Part shown: positions 722 to 16,657 of the stretch, in pieces
How the letters are laid out: every line of letters starts with the position of its first letter
Numbering within the stretch: position 1 is the first letter of the stretch
Assembly (NCBI GenBank): GCA_903839795.1
Contig: CAIMDR010000213.1
Span: forward strand, 1 to 16,657
Direction of reading: 5' to 3'
Source of the DNA: an uncultured Methylococcaceae bacterium
GTDB lineage: Bacteria; Pseudomonadota; Gammaproteobacteria; Methylococcales; Methylomonadaceae
DNA: 16,657 nt
Translations under genes and position numbers: made by a program
Notes under the pieces: generated by a model
Seen by the model: the letters and a program-made list of their open reading frames with translations, nothing else
Told to the model about the DNA's origin: nothing
Databases searched by the model: none

Positions 722-3700
722 ATGAATAATGTAAATCAACAGGCGTTGGAACAAGCCATGCAAATCTGTGCTGCTGAGCCTATTCATCAAATTGGCCATA
801 TTCAGCCGCATGGCGCGATACTGGTTTTAAGCGCAGACAACCTGCGTATGGTACTTCAGGCCAGTTCCAATATTAACTGTTTTATTGATTGTCCTGTTGA
901 AGGTGCGCTCGGCAAGTCACTGATTGAGCTAATGGGAGGTGCTTCAGCTCGACAGATTGAGCAATTAATTGAAGATGCCAAAGTTCACGATAATGCTACC
1001 GGCCTGGTCAGCGCTTCCCTGCAACAAATGTCGGTAGATCTTGATGTACATATTTATAGAGACGAGAGCTTGTGGATATTGGAGCTATGTCATGACATCG
1101 GTTTGCCCAAACGAGAGAAGTTGGGTGAGCTGCTTATGCGCTTGCAGGACTCGCTATTGGCTACTAAATCAGATACCGAAACTATTAGTTACTTTGAAGA
1201 GATCACTCAGTTAGTACAGTCGCTTACCGGCTATGATAGTGTCATGGCTTATCGTTTTGAAGCCAATTGGGACGGCGAGGTTATTGCCCAAAGCCGTATT
1301 GAAACGGCCCCTTCTTATCTGGGCACGCAGTTCCCGGCCAGTGATATTCCGCCTCAGGCACGAGAGTTATACACCAAAAACCTGGTGCGTATCGTTACTG
1401 ATGTCAATGCTGAGCCGATAGCCATAATTCCAACGCTAAATCCGGTCAGTCAACAACCGCTTGATATGACTTATTCGGCATTGCGCAGTCTTTCTCCCAT
1501 ACATCTGGAATACCTCCGCAATATGGGGGTTGAGGCGTCTATGGTGATTTCACTACTGCAAAACGGGCGGTTATGGGGTTTAATTTCTTGTCATCACATG
1601 ACTCCAAAACGGGTATCTTTCGCCATGCGGGATGCCGCAATGTTTATCTCACGAATGGCATCAACAGAGCTGACATCAATTGAATTAAGGGCGGAACATA
1701 AATTACGTATAAAGGTTTCGCATATTAAAACTGCATTGCTTAAATCCATCATCACCCAGTCAGAAGAGAAAGTTCTGCAACGCTTAAGCTCCGATCTCCT
1801 TAACGCAGTCGATGCTTCAGGTCTGATTATTGTCGTTGAAGGCAAGCGTTATGTCTTTGGACAAGTACCGGAAGCGATAGCGGTTGATGAACTCTTGAGC
1901 TGGTTAGGCAAGCAGTCAATAACAGATATTTTTAGCTGCAATAATCTGTCCGAACAGTTTTCTGCCGCCAGTGCCTATACAGAAATTGTATCCGGGGTCA
2001 TTACCTCAACACTTTCAAACGATATGCGCAATTGCCTGGTTTGGTTGCGTAAAGAAAAAACACGTACTGTGAAATGGGCGGGTAGTTACGAACAAGGTCT
2101 TGTGCAAGCCCCGAATGGAAATTTTCATCTTAATCCTCGAAACTCCTTTAAATCCTGGTCGGAATTATCGCGTGGCCATAGTATCCCGTGGACTTTACTC
2201 GAGATTAAAATTGTTAATGCCTTTGGGCAGACCCTCTCGGAAGGTTTGGCACAAAAACATAAGTCTCGGCTGGCAGATAATGAACGAGTAGAGCTTCTGG
2301 GACGTTTGCAAAAAATTGCCAGCCGTTTGCCGGGGGTTGTCTATCAATTTCGTTTGGATGCTAATGGCAATAACAGCTTTCCCTATATTAGTGAAGGTAT
2401 TAGTGATATTTATCGGCTCAGGCCGGAAGACGTTTTCGATAATGGAGCAAAAATATTTGCCCTGATTCACCCCGATGACCAATGCGATATGTGGCAATCC
2501 ATTCAACAATCCGCTCAACACTTGACGCCATGGAATCACGAGTATCGAGTGAAGTTTAATGAGGGTGATGAGCGTTGGCTGCATGGAAACTCAATACCCG
2601 AAAAGGAAGCGGACGGCTCAACGTTATGGCACGGCTTCGTCACAGATATCACCGTACGCAAGCAGGCCGAAGATGAACTACGTATTGCCGCTACGGCCTT
2701 TCAACTTCAAGAAGGCATTATGGTCACCGATGCCGATGGCATTATCTTGCAGGTAAATAATGCCTATACGGCCATCACTGGCTATTCTCCGCAGGACGTC
2801 ATTGGCAAGAACCAACACCTTCTTAACTCAGGGCGCAACGATGTTAATTTTTATACCGAGATGTGGAATACCATTAAAAAAAGTGGTTCTTGGTCAGGTG
2901 AAAGCTGGGATCGTCGCAAGAATGGTGAAATATATCCGGAATACTTGACTATCACGGCAGTAAAAGCAGTCAATGGTAAGGTAACCAATTACGTTACCAG
3001 CCTGACTGATATTACCATCAGTAAAGCTGCCGATTCCGAGATTCGACATCTGGCCTACTACGACCCGCTTACGCAATTGGCCAATCGACGACTGCTTAGG
3101 GATCGTATTCAGCATGCCTTGGCAGTTAGCATCCATAGCGGGGAAAAAGGTGCGCTTATGTTTCTTGACCTGGATTATTTTAAGACGCTTAACGACACCC
3201 TCGGTCATGAGGTGGGTGACTTACTATTGCAACAGGTTGCAACCCGGCTAATAAGTTGCGTGCGTGAAAGCGATACCGTAGCTCGTTTAGGGGGTGATGA
3301 GTTTGTCATATTGTTGGAAGGTTTAAGTAAGCATGCCATTGCTGCAGCGGCGGAAACCAAAGTGATTGGTGATAAGATTCTGGCGACTCTTAGTCAACCC
3401 TACCAATTTGCTTCACATAAATACCACGGTACAGTAAGTATGGGCGCTACTTTGTTTACAGGTCAGCGAGAAGGCATAGATGAACTTTTTCGGCAGGCAG
3501 ATATTGCGATGTATCAGGCTAAGGCTAGTGGCCGCAATAGTCTGTACTTTTTTGATCAACAGATGCAAGAGTCCATTAATGCGCGTGCATCAATAGAAAC
3601 TGATTTACGCAGTGCACTTGAACAGCAACAATTTCAACTGTATTACCAAATTCAGGTTGATGCCTTGGAGCGCCCAATAGGTGCAGAGGCGCTGATTCGG

Positions 3701-4387
3701 TGGCTACACCCTCAGCGTGGTTTGGTATCACCCTATCATTTCATTCCGCTGGCAGAAGAAATCGGGCTGATTTTACCAATTGGACAATGGGTATTAGAAA
3801 CCGCTTGCGCTCAACTAAAGGCATGGGAACAAGATGAGGCTACCAGCAATCTTACGCTATCAATTAACGTCAGCGCCAAGCAATTCCACCAAGCAAACTT
3901 TGTAGCCCAAGTGCAAAGCGCAGTACAACGTCATGCAATTAATCCAACTAAATTGAAGATGGAGCTGACCGAAAGTATGTTGGCCGAGAATCTTGAACAG
4001 ATTATCGCTGCAATGAGTACATTGAATGTCCTTGGCATTCGCTTTTCATTGGACGACTTTGGCACCGGCTATTCATCTCTGCAATATCTGAAACATTTGC
4101 CTTTGTATCAAATGAAAATCGATCAGGCGTTTGTGCGAGACATTACCGTTAATAGCAGCAATGATCGTGAACTCGTGTGCGCTATTATTAGAATGGCGGA
4201 AAATTTGGGGCTTGAGGTTATTGCCGAAGGGGTTGAAACAAAAGAACAGCAAAAAATTCTCTTAGAAAGAGGCTGTGTCCATTACCAAGGTTATTTATTT
4301 GGCAAGCCTACACCGATTAAGCAGTTTGAAGTGGAGCTAAACAGGAATGCTTTTCGGTTTGCTGTACTCACTCACTTACCCAGTTAA
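722..4387 (+). CDS. bphP: Bacteriophytochrome with PAS-GAF-PHY-PAS-PAS-GGDEF-EAL
   Basis: A 1221-residue cytoplasmic photoreceptor predicted to control cyclic-di-GMP; no signal peptide or membrane segment is visible. The photosensory core has an N-terminal PAS (about 16-120) with the biliverdin-attachment Cys16 in the context CAAEPIHQIGHIQPHG. The GAF (about 145-310) has the DIP motif at 208-210 in PASDIPPQAR and His261 in SPIHLEY. The PHY (about 325-500) has the tongue motif PRNSF at 472-476 followed by W-x-E and PW. Two PAS domains follow (about 525-650 and 655-780). GGDEF at 857-861 is intact, with an RxxD inhibitory site (RESD, 848-851) exactly five residues upstream. The EAL motif (989-991), ELTES, DDFGTG (from 1111), MKID and AEGVE are all present, so both cyclase and phosphodiesterase could be active. 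The ATG at 722 has only a weak ribosome site but places Cys16 normally. The adjacent heme oxygenase is dead, so biliverdin must come from elsewhere. Confidence 0.95.
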   Translation: MNNVNQQALEQAMQICAAEPIHQIGHIQPHGAILVLSADNLRMVLQASSNINCFIDCPVEGALGKSLIELMGGASARQIEQLIEDAKVHDNATGLVSASLQQMSVDLDVHIYRDESLWILELCHDIGLPKREKLGELLMRLQDSLLATKSDTETISYFEEITQLVQSLTGYDSVMAYRFEANWDGEVIAQSRIETAPSYLGTQFPASDIPPQARELYTKNLVRIVTDVNAEPIAIIPTLNPVSQQPLDMTYSALRSLSPIHLEYLRNMGVEASMVISLLQNGRLWGLISCHHMTPKRVSFAMRDAAMFISRMASTELTSIELRAEHKLRIKVSHIKTALLKSIITQSEEKVLQRLSSDLLNAVDASGLIIVVEGKRYVFGQVPEAIAVDELLSWLGKQSITDIFSCNNLSEQFSAASAYTEIVSGVITSTLSNDMRNCLVWLRKEKTRTVKWAGSYEQGLVQAPNGNFHLNPRNSFKSWSELSRGHSIPWTLLEIKIVNAFGQTLSEGLAQKHKSRLADNERVELLGRLQKIASRLPGVVYQFRLDANGNNSFPYISEGISDIYRLRPEDVFDNGAKIFALIHPDDQCDMWQSIQQSAQHLTPWNHEYRVKFNEGDERWLHGNSIPEKEADGSTLWHGFVTDITVRKQAEDELRIAATAFQLQEGIMVTDADGIILQVNNAYTAITGYSPQDVIGKNQHLLNSGRNDVNFYTEMWNTIKKSGSWSGESWDRRKNGEIYPEYLTITAVKAVNGKVTNYVTSLTDITISKAADSEIRHLAYYDPLTQLANRRLLRDRIQHALAVSIHSGEKGALMFLDLDYFKTLNDTLGHEVGDLLLQQVATRLISCVRESDTVARLGGDEFVILLEGLSKHAIAAAAETKVIGDKILATLSQPYQFASHKYHGTVSMGATLFTGQREGIDELFRQADIAMYQAKASGRNSLYFFDQQMQESINARASIETDLRSALEQQQFQLYYQIQVDALERPIGAEALIRWLHPQRGLVSPYHFIPLAEEIGLILPIGQWVLETACAQLKAWEQDEATSNLTLSINVSAKQFHQANFVAQVQSAVQRHAINPTKLKMELTESMLAENLEQIIAAMSTLNVLGIRFSLDDFGTGYSSLQYLKHLPLYQMKIDQAFVRDITVNSSNDRELVCAIIRMAENLGLEVIAEGVETKEQQKILLERGCVHYQGYLFGKPTPIKQFEVELNRNAFRFAVLTHLPS

Positions 4388-13302: not shown

Positions 13303-13979
13303 AAGTAATGATTTTAGCCGCAGGGCGAGGCGAGCGAATGCGCCCCTTAACGGATTACACACCCAAACCACTGCTGCCGGTAGCAGGAAAGACAATCATT
13401 GAACATACCATAAAGCAACTGGTTGCGGCGGGTTTTAACGATATTATCATTAATCACGCGCATTTGGGTCAACAGATAGAACAGCACTTGGGCAATGGTC
13501 AGCAGTATGGCGCAACTATTCATTATTCACCCGAAGGCGAGCAGGGACTGGAAACGGCGGGCGGTATTATTAATGCCTTGCCTTTATTGGGTGACGCCGT
13601 TTTTTTGGTGGTTAATGGTGATGTTGCGACAGATTTTCCTTTTGCCGAACTCAAAAATCAGACGGTTGATTTAGCCCATTTAGTGCTGGTTGATAATCCT
13701 GACCATCATCCTCAGGGAGATTTTGGCTTGGATGACGCCGGAAAAGTGACTGAAAAGAATGTCGAGAAATTTACGTTTAGCGGTATCGGCTTATACCGTC
13801 CGGCCCTGTTCAGCAACATTCCCGCAGGAAGCAGTAAGCTAGGGCCTTTGTTACGTCAGGCCATGTCAAGTCAGCGCGTTTCAGGGCAAAAATTTTCAGG
13901 ATTCTGGATGGATATAGGTACACCGGAACGCTTGCAGGAACTTAATCATTTATATGCATCAAGAATACCTCATGCCTGA
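13299..13979 (+). CDS. murU: MurU, MurNAc-1-phosphate uridylyltransferase
   Basis: A 226-residue nucleotidyltransferase joining UTP and MurNAc-alpha-1-phosphate to give UDP-MurNAc, the step after AmgK. It begins directly with the nucleotide-binding signature MILAAGRGERMRPLTDYTPKPLLPVAGK, with Arg15 and Lys23 in the usual places. GLETAGGI (83-90) and the metal-binding Asp108 in VVNGDVATDFPF follow. The C-terminal GFWMDIGTPERLQEL carries a second acidic residue, Asp205. Length matches the MurU family and lacks the left-handed helix domain of GlmU-type enzymes. Its ATG overlaps the amgK stop, so the two are translationally coupled. A hairpin repeat begins 18 bases after its stop. Confidence 0.93.
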   Translation: MKVMILAAGRGERMRPLTDYTPKPLLPVAGKTIIEHTIKQLVAAGFNDIIINHAHLGQQIEQHLGNGQQYGATIHYSPEGEQGLETAGGIINALPLLGDAVFLVVNGDVATDFPFAELKNQTVDLAHLVLVDNPDHHPQGDFGLDDAGKVTEKNVEKFTFSGIGLYRPALFSNIPAGSSKLGPLLRQAMSSQRVSGQKFSGFWMDIGTPERLQELNHLYASRIPHA

Positions 13980-13996
13980 TCATATTTATGTCGACA

Positions 13997-14023
13997 GATA
14001 CCATCCCTACAAAGGATGTTATC
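13997..14023. repeat. Hairpin 3' of murU
   Basis: The arms gataccatcc (13997-14006) and ggatgttatc (14014-14023) pair at 9 of 10 positions around a 7-base loop. No T-run follows. It may stabilise or end the murU transcript, and it resembles the hairpin at 7848-7878. Confidence 0.5.
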
Positions 14024-14117
14024 GGTATGATCTTACAGCGACGTGAATTGGACATTTAATTTAGGCTAATTTCCAAGCTTCAGCTTCTAGTCTCACGAAG
14101 CTAGAGCTTCGACCTCT

Positions 14118-14145
14118 GGGTTCCCAATCTGGAGCTTGGGAACCC
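14118..14145. repeat. gttcccaa palindromic repeat, left of the CoaB/CoaC cassette
   Basis: The arms gggttccca (14118-14126) and tgggaaccc (14137-14145) form a perfect 9-bp stem. The 15 bases at 14129-14143 recur as an exact reverse complement at 16410-16424, just beyond the far end of the cassette. This is a REP-like dispersed palindrome. Confidence 0.65.
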
Positions 14146-14443
14146 GCGCAAACGATGATATTACCTTAATGTTTTTTAAATGCAGCGGGTTATTTGCACT
14201 TAAATTGGCGTAATTTCTGTCAGGCAAGGGTATTTACAATATAAGCTGACCGGCTTTTTATATGAATAGCGATACCTGTTACGTGAGGATGGTTACCGTC
14301 CAAAAAAAATAGGTTACCACTACACAAAAACCCTAGCGTCTATATTATGTCATTGATTTATAACTTTTATTAAATAATATAAGGTGTTGGCTTGCAGGAT
14401 TTAGTTGTTACATATTGATACAATTCATCATTAGGTTAACTTA

Positions 14444-14472
14444 TTGACTTATGTTAAATTTTATCTTTTTAT
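14444..14472 (+). promoter_or_regulatory. Candidate sigma-70 promoter for the CoaB/CoaC cassette
   Basis: TTGACT (14444-14449) is a 5/6 match to the -35 box. Seventeen bases later TTTTAT (14467-14472) is a 4/6 match to the -10 box, in AT-rich sequence. It lies 65 bases before the start codon of the CoaB-like gene and is the best-spaced pair seen in the gap. Confidence 0.4.
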
Positions 14473-14496
14473 GGCAACGGCTAAGCAGGATTTTAA

Positions 14497-14541
14497 ATGA
14501 ATACCACAAACGTTTATTTTAAGAATGGAGAGGGAATATGA
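14497..14541 (+). CDS. Possible 14-residue leader peptide overlapping the CoaB start
   Basis: An ATG at 14497, seven bases after an AGGA ribosome site (14487-14490), opens MNTTNVYFKNGEGI and stops at TGA 14539-14541. That stop overlaps the ATG of the CoaB-like gene as ATGA, the same coupling seen between the two cassette genes. It could couple translation or be a leader. No attenuator hairpin or codon run (for example Cys) is visible, and the strong ribosome site of the next gene lies inside it, so chance is a real alternative. Confidence 0.3.
   Translation: MNTTNVYFKNGEGI
14527..14534 (+). promoter_or_regulatory. Strong ribosome binding site of the CoaB-like gene
   Basis: The purine block ggagaggg ends three bases before the ATG at 14538, with its GGAG core seven bases away. 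It fixes that start and is stronger than the sites of most other genes in the window. Confidence 0.7.
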
Positions 14542-15263
14542 AAATACTCGTTACATCAGGTGGAACAAAAGTACCGATTGATCGTGTGAGAGATATTACT
14601 AATATGTCTAAAGGGACATTTGGTAGCAAAATCTCAGAACAGTTGCTCAAATTGGACCAAGATGTATTCTTCTTGAAATCCAAAGGGTCTAAATCCCCAA
14701 TGTCGGCGACTGTTGATTTTGCGGCGAATAACCATGGCGAACCTGTTATGGCGACGGTGGAGAATGCCCAAGCATTATACACCAGATATTTTGAGCATTG
14801 GCGAGAAATGGAATATACCACATTCAATCAATACCGTGATTGTTTGGAACATATCGTCAAAGTTGAGAAACCCGATGTTGTGGTATTGGCCGCAGCGGCT
14901 AGTGATTATGGAGTCGCAAATTTTGTAAATGGGAAAATGAGGTCGAATGACGATTATAAGATTTTTCTCGAACCATTGCCCAAATTAATTCATTATATTA
15001 AGGAATGGTTGCCGACCGCTAAGTTAGTCGGATTTAAACTATTGGTAGAGTCAACTCCACATGGATTGATCGCTGCCGCCAAGCGCAGCATTGCTGATAA
15101 TAAATGTGATTTGATGGTCGCAAATGATCTTCAAGACATCAAGGATAATAAACATCGGGTATTCATTGTTCGTCCTGATGGAAGTGACACCTTGTATAAT
15201 ACCGACCCAAATGATTCCAATTATTTGGCCCGTATGGTCGCAGAAAACATTATCAAGATATGA
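14538..15263 (+). CDS. coaB: Stand-alone CoaB-like phosphopantothenate-cysteine ligase
   Basis: A 241-residue cytoplasmic protein with the fold and motifs of the CoaB domain, which joins 4'-phosphopantothenate and cysteine. Visible landmarks are ILVTSGGTKVPIDRVRDITN (3-22), the ASDY motif (121-124) where classical CoaB has ADY/VADY, NGKM (131-134) near the usual GK loop, LVGFKLLVE (163-171) and CDLMVANDL (190-198). The sequence is closest in memory to the separate CoaB of streptococci and enterococci, which has the same GFKLLV ... ANDL spacing. It is unlike the CoaB half of the proteobacterial CoaBC fusion. It overlaps the next gene, a CoaC-like decarboxylase, by ATGA. GGA (Gly) and CCA (Pro) codons look commoner than in the housekeeping genes to the left, by eye only. 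Since a normal coaBC is expected elsewhere in the genome, this is probably a paralogue or a specialised enzyme. Confidence 0.82.
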   Translation: MKILVTSGGTKVPIDRVRDITNMSKGTFGSKISEQLLKLDQDVFFLKSKGSKSPMSATVDFAANNHGEPVMATVENAQALYTRYFEHWREMEYTTFNQYRDCLEHIVKVEKPDVVVLAAAASDYGVANFVNGKMRSNDDYKIFLEPLPKLIHYIKEWLPTAKLVGFKLLVESTPHGLIAAAKRSIADNKCDLMVANDLQDIKDNKHRVFIVRPDGSDTLYNTDPNDSNYLARMVAENIIKI

Positions 15264-16396
15264 AACGTAGAATATTGCTTGGATTGACCGGAAGTGTAGC
15301 ATCGGTTTTGTATGTTAAACTCATCAAAGAGTTATCGAAAGTTGGCACGGTGGATGTCATTTTGACTGATAAGGCGAAATGTTTTATCGATATAGTAGAA
15401 CTTAGGAATGCCTTGTTAAATCAACCAGTCGGTGTCGGGGAGATTTATACAGATGATAGTGAATGGGAATGGGGTAATCCTACTCGATCCCCGGTACAGC
15501 ATTGTTATGTTAATCGAACAAAATGGCAAAAGGATGACCAAGTTCTACATATCATACTTCGGGATCAATCAGCGGCCTTGGTAATTGCACCTTGCTCGGC
15601 AAATACGCTTGCGAAAATATCTAATGGGATATCGGATAATCTTATAACATCTATTGCCAGAGCATGGGATTTAAATCGCCCATTCATCATCGCCCCGTCG
15701 ATGAATACCCACATGTGGGAACATCCTCTTACACAAGAACACCTTGCTCGGTTTCGTTCTTTCTCAAAAAATAATATATTTGTATCACCACAGGCAAAAA
15801 TGTTGGCATGTAATACCGAAGGTATGGGCGCATTAGCAAATATTGATACTATCCAAGAATGTTTGGAACATGCATTGACATGGAAGTTTCCCTTGGAGGT
15901 TTGTAGTGGAATTCCCGCAAATGGACATCCAGGCGCATTTTTAAATGCTCGGAAAAATTATACTCATGCCGGAGTAGATCTATATTGTAAAGATGGGGCA
16001 TTAGTAACTGCGGTGGAAGATGGAAAAATTATTGGAAAAGAACAGTTTACTGGAGGTACTGCTTCGTCGTGGTGGGAAGATACTTGGTGTATATTAGTTG
16101 AGGGTGCCTCTGGAGTCATTTGTTATGGTGAAATCAATGATTATACTGGAGATATTATTGGGCGGAATGTAAAGCGTGGGCAAGTTATTGGATATGTAAA
16201 ACGAGTCCTTAAAGAGGGTAAAGAAAGACCTGATATTGCAGGGCATAGTACCAGTATGCTTCATATAGAGATCCATAAACACGGCATTCAACGAGCATTT
16301 GAAGAAATGGGGGATCATAAAATAGACTGGAACGATTTAATTGACCCAACGTATTTCTTACTAAATTCCGAGGGCGCACCCGAAAGACGATTGTAA
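15260..16396 (+). CDS. Eukaryote-type PPC decarboxylase (CoaC/HAL3) fused to an M23/LytM-like domain
   Basis: A 378-residue fusion. Residues 1-208 form an HFCD flavoprotein like plant HAL3a or animal PPCDC. Landmarks are the FMN loop GLTGSVAS (8-15), the proposed catalytic His97 in VLHIILRD, PCSANTLAKISNGISDNLIT, RAWD, the substrate-binding Asn149 in APSMNTHMWEHPLT, and Cys184 in LACNTEGMGA. This predicts decarboxylation of phosphopantothenoylcysteine. Residues about 210-370 match an M23 (LytM) metallopeptidase: HAGVD gives metal ligands His236 and Asp240, and MLHIEI gives His335. The two catalytic histidines are replaced, by Glu291 in CYGEI (usual Y-x-H-L) and by Met333 in MLH (usual HLH). 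No signal peptide or membrane segment exists, so the M23-like part should be cytosolic, unusual for a cell-wall hydrolase. It is ATGA-coupled to the CoaB-like gene. Catalytic competence of the second domain is doubtful; substrate or ligand binding is an alternative. Confidence 0.85.
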   Translation: MKRRILLGLTGSVASVLYVKLIKELSKVGTVDVILTDKAKCFIDIVELRNALLNQPVGVGEIYTDDSEWEWGNPTRSPVQHCYVNRTKWQKDDQVLHIILRDQSAALVIAPCSANTLAKISNGISDNLITSIARAWDLNRPFIIAPSMNTHMWEHPLTQEHLARFRSFSKNNIFVSPQAKMLACNTEGMGALANIDTIQECLEHALTWKFPLEVCSGIPANGHPGAFLNARKNYTHAGVDLYCKDGALVTAVEDGKIIGKEQFTGGTASSWWEDTWCILVEGASGVICYGEINDYTGDIIGRNVKRGQVIGYVKRVLKEGKERPDIAGHSTSMLHIEIHKHGIQRAFEEMGDHKIDWNDLIDPTYFLLNSEGAPERRL

Positions 16397-16409
16397 ATGG
16401 TTTTTGCTC

Positions 16410-16540
16410 GTTCCCAAGCTCCAGCTTCACTGCAATTAAGTTAAGAAAAAATTCATTTAAAAACAATGCTTTTTAATCCTTTTATGATTTATGAGGGTGC
16501 TGATTTTATATAATTTCTGTTACGCGTAAACTTGGGAACC
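16410..16540. repeat. gttcccaa repeat pair right of the cassette
   Basis: The sequence gttcccaagctccag (16410-16424) is the exact reverse complement of 14129-14143. A further inverted copy of its first nine bases lies at 16531-16539 (cttgggaac). The AT-rich stretch between has no gene. The pair may delimit a small non-autonomous element. Confidence 0.5.
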
Positions 16541-16598
16541 ATATTGATCAATCTTATCCCAAAATTGCTGCCATCTTCCTTGGGTCTGAACGAGCCGC

Positions 16599-16649
16599 GT
16601 CGGGCAACAGCTTTATCGTTGCCCGACAATCATGCCGAAATTGTCGGGC
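16599..16649. repeat. Two overlapping perfect hairpins sharing an arm
   Basis: The arm gtcgggcaac (16599-16608) pairs perfectly with gttgcccgac (16618-16627). The overlapping segment gcccgacaat (16621-16630) pairs perfectly with attgtcgggc (16640-16649). The shared bases 16621-16627 can be in only one hairpin at a time. It is probably a dispersed palindromic repeat cut by the window end; no gene is seen next to it. Confidence 0.6.
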
Positions 16650-16657
16650 GCAAAGAG

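What the first reader, a model, noticed from the sequence alone, without database searches (positions are those of the whole stretch)
15260..16396. Decarboxylase of coenzyme A synthesis fused to a catalytically altered M23/LytM-like domain
Seen: residues 1-208 carry a full set of eukaryote-type PPCDC motifs (His97, Asn149, Cys184), and residues 210-370 carry HAGVD and MLHIE of an M23 fold. The three metal ligands (His236, Asp240, His335) remain, but both catalytic histidines are replaced (Glu291, Met333). Known: M23 enzymes cut peptidoglycan outside the cytoplasm, whereas PPCDC enzymes are cytosolic. Inference: with no export signal, the second domain acts in the cytosol, perhaps as a binding or allosteric module, or as a peptidase or amidase with new chemistry using Glu291. 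I know of no described role for such a fusion.
Basis: partly seen in the sequence, partly recalled or inferred. Interest (0 to 1): 0.85.

Follow-up and report, generated by a model that had tools for sequence, protein, structure and literature searches.

The report
Phage coenzyme-A enzyme fused to M23-fold domain
A bacterial chromosome carries a two-gene cassette of the kind found in large phages: two enzymes for making a coenzyme A precursor, one of them fused to a metal-site protein fold normally used to cut cell walls, and in viral DNA these three parts tend to travel together although what the third part does is unknown.

Summary
The ORF at 15260-16396 joins a complete HAL3-type PPC decarboxylase (PPCDC) to an M23-fold domain that keeps its metal ligands (H236, D240, H335) but has Glu291 and Met333 in place of both catalytic histidines. 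It overlaps an upstream PPC synthetase gene (PPCS, 14538-15263). It is no frameshift: all 120 listed relatives keep HxGxD, YGE and MLHxE. The fusion is of large-phage type; the window copy groups with viral contigs and sits in a chromosome between host repeats, with an ordinary CoaBC elsewhere. Of 41 viral PPCS loci, 40 have PPCDC and 34 the YGE/MLH M23-like protein within the held flanks: 18 fused, 16 separate, in all six gene orders, always on one strand. This ties an M23-fold family to the phosphopantetheine pathway; the papers searched showed no report of it. PPCS and PPCDC probably make 4'-phosphopantetheine. The M23-like part most likely acts inside the cell in that pathway through its metal site, perhaps as a hydrolase using Glu291; this is inferred, and a pure binding role is not excluded.

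The parts
14538..15263 (+). PPCS (CoaB-like phosphopantothenate-cysteine ligase), 241 aa
   Evidence: Pfam DFP 90.4 bits; NCBIfam CoaB models as best hits, below their equivalog cut-offs; best PDB 2gk4, then CAB2 and human PPCS
14527..14534 (+). GGAGAGGG, ribosome-binding-like site before the PPCS start
   Evidence: read from the sequence
15260..16396 (+). PPCDC-M23-like fusion gene, 378 aa; its ATG overlaps the PPCS stop (ATGA)
15260..15883 (+). PPCDC domain, residues 1-208 (H97, N149, C184)
15887..16393 (+). M23-fold domain, residues 210-378
   Evidence: Pfam Peptidase_M23 33.7 bits when scanned alone; structure matches
15965..15979 (+). HAGVD: metal ligands H236 and D240
   Evidence: equivalent H and D invariant in 23 diverse family members
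16124..16132 (+). YGE: Glu291 where M23 enzymes have a catalytic His
   Evidence: YGE present in 248 of 248 proteins held
16256..16270 (+). MLHIE: Met333 in place of the first His of HxH; His335 third metal ligand
   Evidence: MLHxE present in 248 of 248 proteins held
14126..14156 (+). left arm of an inverted repeat bracketing the cassette (host dispersed repeat)
   Evidence: 81% complementary to 16397-16427; upstream flank 13980-14537 has 42 other matches in the genome
16397..16427 (-). right arm of the inverted repeat, directly after the fusion stop codon
   Evidence: downstream flank 16397-16657 has 24 other matches in the genome

Best explanation
This is a cassette of large-phage type, now in a bacterial chromosome, that makes 4'-phosphopantetheine: PPCS joins cysteine to phosphopantothenate and the PPCDC domain decarboxylates the product. 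The fused M23-fold domain is an intracellular relative of cell-wall peptidases that has left peptidoglycan. It keeps the His-Asp-His metal site but has fixed Glu291 and Met333 in place of the two catalytic histidines, and it acts in the same pathway, most likely as a metal-dependent enzyme (Glu291 as base) on a pathway metabolite or a molecule carrying one. Shown: domains, fold, residues, conservation, linkage, occurrence in phage records. Inferred from family: the reactions of PPCS and PPCDC. Inferred with weak support: metal-dependent catalysis by the M23-like part; its substrate is unknown.
For: Complete PPCDC motifs and fold. PPCS fits its family. Of 41 viral PPCS loci 40 have PPCDC and 34 have the M23-like protein, all 34 with YGE and MLH; after grouping near-copies, 34 and 30 of 35. 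Of the 30 loci on contigs not already returned, 23 have it. All six orders of the three genes occur, always on one strand. The next commonest gene family around these loci is in only 6 of 35 groups, so the rest of the neighbourhood is not conserved. Some of these phages also carry CoaD (over cut-off in 4 of 26 records) and CoaE (3 of 26), the two side by side in the 735 kb phage. YGE and MLHxE in 248 of 248 and HxGxD in 246 of 248 proteins held (the two lacking it are 125 and 109 aa long); metal ligands, Glu and Met invariant in two alignments. The window copy groups with viral contigs L032 and L118 (99/92).
Against: Eleven of 25 phage records with the M23-like gene have neither PPCS nor PPCDC (complete genomes of XacN1, PA5oct and RAS14 among them), so it may have a role outside this pathway; that host CoaBC supplies the rest is assumed. 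Seven of 41 PPCS loci lack it within the held flanks (L122, L135, L150, L151, L152, L153, L158; L135 and L153 reach contig ends, L122 has a short PPCS and L152 and L158 PPCS in two pieces). The 462 kb record LR756500 has PPCS, CoaD and CoaE without it (PPCDC not tested there). Eleven of the 12 PPCS seed sequences came from the window or from loci found through the fusion or its parts, which favours linkage. The protein sets were found with queries that carry the motifs. No assay, metal or substrate evidence exists. M23-fold proteins lacking the catalytic set are mostly binders (PMC9662197, passages). Type III pantothenate kinase was found in none of 26 records.
Confidence: 0.55

Rival explanations
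1. The M23-like domain is a non-catalytic, metal-holding binding or regulatory module for PPCDC/PPCS (for example holding the thiol product or assembling the two enzymes), as LECT2 and EnvC use the M23 fold for binding.
Against: Glu and Met sit at these sites in all members aligned, which fits an active site better than simple loss; the protein also occurs in phages without their own PPCS or PPCDC (11 of 25 records).
Confidence: 0.3
2. The M23-like domain is still a lysis or peptidoglycan enzyme and the fusion merely co-expresses it.
For: Its best PHROGs matches are metallo-endopeptidase and endolysin profiles (27.5 and 23.5 bits for the window protein; 61.1 bits to an endolysin profile for the XacN1 protein); the fold is that of LytM and lysostaphin.
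Against: Catalytic histidines replaced; fused to or encoded beside CoA enzymes in 34 of 41 PPCS loci; 124 of 125 family proteins under 300 aa show no hydrophobic N-terminus by a crude scan, although endolysins released by holins would not need one.
Confidence: 0.06
3. Assembly chimera: a phage fragment joined to a bacterial contig.
For: The cassette is near the contig end and 0 of 200 other genomes of the family have it at E up to 1e-30.
Against: Host dispersed repeats lie on both sides; the 90% cluster of this protein holds 3 sequences on 2 contigs.
Confidence: 0.07
4. The cassette is bacterial and phages acquired it from bacteria.
For: PPCS and PPCDC are cellular enzymes by origin (recalled).
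Against: A scan of 84,980 bacterial and archaeal species genomes returned 17 loci, none with the fusion (two peptide patterns only, and records near the window's genome may be left out); 1 of 201 family genomes has it, the window's own; the window copy nests among viral copies.
Confidence: 0.06

Closest known systems
HAL3-type PPC decarboxylase (AtHAL3a, human PPCDC; Pfam PF02441)
   Different: Carries an M23-fold domain; gene of phage type
M23 peptidases (LytM, lysostaphin, zoocin A)
   Same: Fold; metal ligands of H(x)3D and the second His of HxH
   Different: Glu and Met replace both catalytic histidines; probably intracellular, fused to or encoded beside CoA enzymes
LECT2
   Same: M23 fold; metal triad kept, a catalytic histidine lost
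   Different: Secreted mammalian protein with no enzyme partner
Degenerate LytM activators EnvC and NlpD
   Same: M23 fold without the full catalytic set
   Different: They bind and activate amidases in cell division; here the metal ligands are conserved and the partners are CoA enzymes
Bacterial CoaBC (the genome's own copy, L052:1402-2628)
   Same: Same two reactions expected
   Different: CoaBC joins PPCDC to PPCS in one chain; here PPCS is a separate overlapping gene and PPCDC is fused to an M23 fold

Membership tests
PPC decarboxylase (PPCDC/HAL3) | Flavoprotein domain over the curated cut-off | tested here: met
   102.1 bits against 22.7
PPC decarboxylase (PPCDC/HAL3) | Catalytic His, Asn (NxxMW) and Cys | tested here: met
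   H97, N149, M152, C184, invariant in 42 sequences. Roles of the residues recalled
PPC decarboxylase (PPCDC/HAL3) | Fold of solved PPCDC | tested here: met
PPC decarboxylase (PPCDC/HAL3) | FMN binding and decarboxylation of PPC | not testable with these tools
   needs purified protein
M23 peptidase | M23 fold and Pfam Peptidase_M23 over cut-off | tested here: met
M23 peptidase | H(x)nD metal motif | tested here: met
   H236, D240
M23 peptidase | HxH motif | tested here: not met
   MLH in 248 of 248 proteins held, HLH in none
M23 peptidase | Second catalytic His about 30 residues before HxH (LytM His260) | tested here: not met
   YGE at the aligned place; role from PMC9662197, passages. Three of the 248 proteins also contain a YGH somewhere
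M23 peptidase | Zinc-dependent peptide bond cleavage | not testable with these tools
   needs assay
Degenerate LytM activator (EnvC/NlpD) | M23 fold lacking a complete catalytic set and/or zinc | tested here: inconclusive
   catalytic histidines absent but metal ligands kept; metal content unknown
Bifunctional CoaBC | PPCDC and PPCS in one chain | tested here: not met
   two ORFs overlapping by 4 bases; coaBC_dfp 121.6 bits against cut-off 219.7
PPCS (CoaB) | DFP domain and similarity to solved CoaB | tested here: met
   90.4 bits against 22; 2gk4 E 6.2e-26
PPCS (CoaB) | Ligase activity with cysteine | not testable with these tools
   needs assay

The most novel reading that the evidence does not exclude
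The YGE/MLHxE family is a new intracellular branch of the M23 fold: a metal amidohydrolase of large phages acting on pantetheine-type amides. With PPCS and PPCDC it would close a cycle (cysteine joined to phosphopantothenate, decarboxylated, then the amide split to release cysteamine and return phosphopantothenate), letting phages turn cysteine into cysteamine or drain the CoA precursor pool; phages carrying only the M23-like gene would use the host CoaBC.
Probability: 0.1. Interest if true: 0.88.

Novelty: new variant of a known kind. Interest (0 to 1): 0.62.

Why it matters
M23 proteins are known as cell-wall enzymes or as binding relatives of these. A family with a fixed alternative active site (the best 120 of 925 matches were seen; the tail may include ordinary M23 proteins), fused to or encoded beside coenzyme A enzymes in phages of up to 735 kb, would be an M23 fold recruited to intracellular metabolism. 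It gives a named partner pathway and hence a short list of substrates to test, and it adds CoA-precursor synthesis to the metabolism that large phages carry.

Tried and rejected
Rejected: frameshift joining two genes (the 120 relatives listed cover 96-100% of the query and keep the M23-part motifs). Rejected: unrelated fold. Defence system: no PADLOC match for three proteins. No Rfam match in 13900-16657. Promoter-like sites no more than in shuffles and no terminator-like site. No DNA match of 14157-16396 in 50,697 phage records. Around the M23-like gene where it stands alone, no other gene family is shared by more than 2 of the 16 loci compared; XacN1 and RAS14 share an R2K ATP-grasp gene and a gene with a sub-threshold HD_4 match beside it (Pfam run on the XacN1 copies only).

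Papers: no title or abstract opening in the listings (20 of 156 listed), 71, 73, 80 and 81 reports a PPCDC-M23 fusion or a phage PPCS/PPCDC module; most of these papers were not opened. Of the main texts of PMC7162821 (huge phages) and PMC7674155 (pmoC phages) I saw passages; the term pantothen occurs in neither. PMC8093824 (passages) lists a CoaD gene in one jumbo phage. PMC4033161 (passages) names Dfp and an M23 peptidase gene as genomic-island border genes, separately. The library is open-access only, so this does not show that nothing is in print.

The profiles were partly trained on members of the loci counted, and each locus holds at most 10 kb on each side. That the IMG/VR contigs are viral is IMG/VR's own classing; I did not test it. 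The tree left out six near-copy loci (L135, L137, L138, L144, L151, L157). The counts (513 and 925) are known only through their best 120 rows.

Full report

The ORF directly upstream, 14538-15263, is a PPCS (CoaB-like ligase). Its stop overlaps the start of the fusion gene (ATGA at 15260-15263), so the two genes are probably translated together (inference). PPCS and PPCDC make successive steps from phosphopantothenate to 4'-phosphopantetheine (pathway knowledge, recalled).

Where the cassette lies. The genome has an ordinary CoaBC elsewhere: DFP matches at 233.7 bits on contig C457, in a 408-residue ORF whose sequence carries both the decarboxylase and the ligase motifs (L052:1402-2628; read by eye). 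The cassette region is lower in GC (0.35-0.41) than most of the contig (0.40-0.50), though a stretch near 7.3-8.3 kb is as low. The upstream flank 13980-14537 has 42 other matches in the genome and the downstream flank 16397-16657 has 24. An inverted repeat (14126-14156 and 16397-16427, 31 bases, 81% complementary) brackets it, the right arm starting directly after the stop codon. So the cassette lies in host DNA. In 201 genomes of the family only this one has it at E up to 1e-30.

The fusion is a family found in phages. A protein search gave 513 relatives; the best 120, the only ones seen, cover 96-100% of the query, and all 120 contain HxGxD, YGE and MLHxE. The 84,980-species genome scan gave 17 loci and no fusion: 16 match the PPCDC profile (9 of them also PPCS) and one, on a 5.5 kb contig binned to a CPR bacterium, is a free-standing M23-like gene. 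That scan used only two peptide patterns, and records near the window's genome may be left out. The scan of viral contigs gave 21 loci, among them contigs of 47, 113, 138, 151 and 527 kb with the fusion, and others with the M23-like domain alone. The 735 kb phage record LR756501 has the fusion followed by PPCS. Free-standing M23-like proteins occur in phages XacN1, PA5oct, RAS14 and Milchi and on Variovorax megaplasmids. A profile search gave 925 relatives, fusions among them, 120 seen. All 128 proteins P0121-P0248 contain YGE and MLHxE, and 126 contain HxGxD; the two that do not are 125 and 109 aa long. These sets were found with queries carrying the motifs.

Linkage. To test the link I scanned viral contigs with PPCS alone (alignment A3) and looked for the other parts in the 41 loci found. 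PPCDC is present in 40 of 41, the M23-like protein in 34 of 41, both in 34. All 34 have YGE and MLH. In 18 the two share one open frame, in 16 they do not. Every match is on the same strand. Orders: PPCS-PPCDC-M23 15 (14 fused), M23-PPCS-PPCDC 10, PPCDC-M23-PPCS 5 (4 fused), PPCDC-PPCS-M23 2, PPCS-M23-PPCDC 1, M23-PPCDC-PPCS 1: all six possible orders. After grouping loci with over 85% DNA identity, 35 groups remain: 34 with PPCDC, 30 with the M23-like protein, 18 fused. Eleven of the 41 loci lie on contigs already returned; of the 30 others 23 have the M23-like protein. The seven without it are L122, L135, L150, L151, L152, L153 and L158: L135 and L153 reach contig ends, L150 and L151 are near-copies, L122 has a short PPCS and no PPCDC, and L152 and L158 have PPCS in two pieces. 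Apart from these genes, no gene family is shared by more than 6 of the 35 groups, so the association is not a by-product of related neighbourhoods. As a contrast, 0 of the 16 PPCDC-profile loci from bacterial and archaeal genomes have the M23-like gene in the stretch held (some are short contigs). Caveats: 11 of the 12 PPCS seeds came from the window or from loci found through the fusion or its parts, and the profiles include some of the counted loci.

Fusion and fission. On a tree of 46 M23-like domains the window copy groups with viral contigs L032 and L118 (99/92) and the fused state needs 8 changes on the best tree; well-supported branches force at least 2. The joining or splitting therefore happened more than once.

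Other CoA genes in the same phages. Among 26 phage records CoaD is over its cut-off in 4 (G218, LR756501, LR756500, G204) and below it in G202 (89 bits); CoaE is over cut-off in 3 (G219, LR756500, LR756501). In LR756501 CoaE and CoaD lie side by side. Type III pantothenate kinase was found in none of 26; other kinase types were not searched. Against the pathway link: LR756500 has PPCS, CoaD and CoaE but no M23-like gene (PPCDC not tested there), and 11 of the 25 records with the M23-like gene have neither PPCS nor PPCDC (several are fragments, but XacN1, PA5oct and RAS14 are given as complete genomes).

What the M23-like part does. Two facts bear on this. First, the metal triad, Glu and Met are invariant across diverse members (23 of 23; YGE and MLHxE in 248 of 248), as is a nearby Arg in the aligned sets, while FTG is in 244 and WW in 247 of 248. 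Second, its partners by fusion and by neighbourhood make phosphopantetheine. I infer an intracellular metal site acting on, or binding, a molecule of that pathway. Glutamate is a common base in other metal peptidases (recalled), so hydrolysis using Glu291 is chemically plausible; nothing here shows it. The M23 review describes relatives lacking the catalytic set as mostly protein binders, and LECT2 keeps zinc on His-Asp-His (PMC13385698, passages), so binding alone remains a serious rival.

Verdict. Observation confirmed; interpretation partly supported. Known parts in a combination that I did not find in the papers searched, recurrent in viral contigs, with one part of unknown chemistry.

Noticed in passing
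L012:5018-5974 (Pseudomonas phage Milchi): A PPCS-like gene (PF04127 51 bits) with an extra N-terminal region overlaps the free-standing M23-like gene; it is about 20% identical to the window PPCS and lacks an otherwise nearly invariant Asn, and the phage has no PPCDC match.
   Followed up: partly
L031:9663-10001: A 112-residue protein with HELAH (Zincin_1, 18.8 bits, below cut-off) sits between PPCS and the fusion in IMG/VR contig 3300011264_000028.
   Followed up: partly
L009:7372-8187 and L013:6700-7509: In XacN1 and RAS14 an R2K ATP-grasp gene (Pfam run on XacN1 only) lies close to the M23-like gene, possibly again an enzyme that forms amide bonds (class property recalled).
   Followed up: no
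L033 (IMGVR_UViG_3300005613_000001, 527,112 bases): Its length is close to the 527,138-base Crystal Bog pmoC-phage CB_2 of PMC7674155 (passages); identity of the two was not checked.
   Followed up: no
L046:9989-11046 (same contig as L121): PPCDC and M23-like ORFs overlap in different frames; either separate overlapping genes or a sequencing frameshift. Counted as separate.
   Followed up: no
L011:5815-6477 (Variovorax sp. SRS16 plasmid 2): An M23-like reading frame (YGE, MLHIE) lies on the megaplasmid in a stretch without a listed gene in the PLSDB table, which is incomplete.
   Followed up: partly
window 13980-14537 and 16397-16657: Families of short dispersed repeats, present in dozens of places in this genome, crowd both flanks of the cassette.
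   Followed up: partly
window 722-4387: A 1221-residue phytochrome-type sensor (PAS_2, GAF, PHY, two further PAS, GGDEF and EAL).
   Followed up: no
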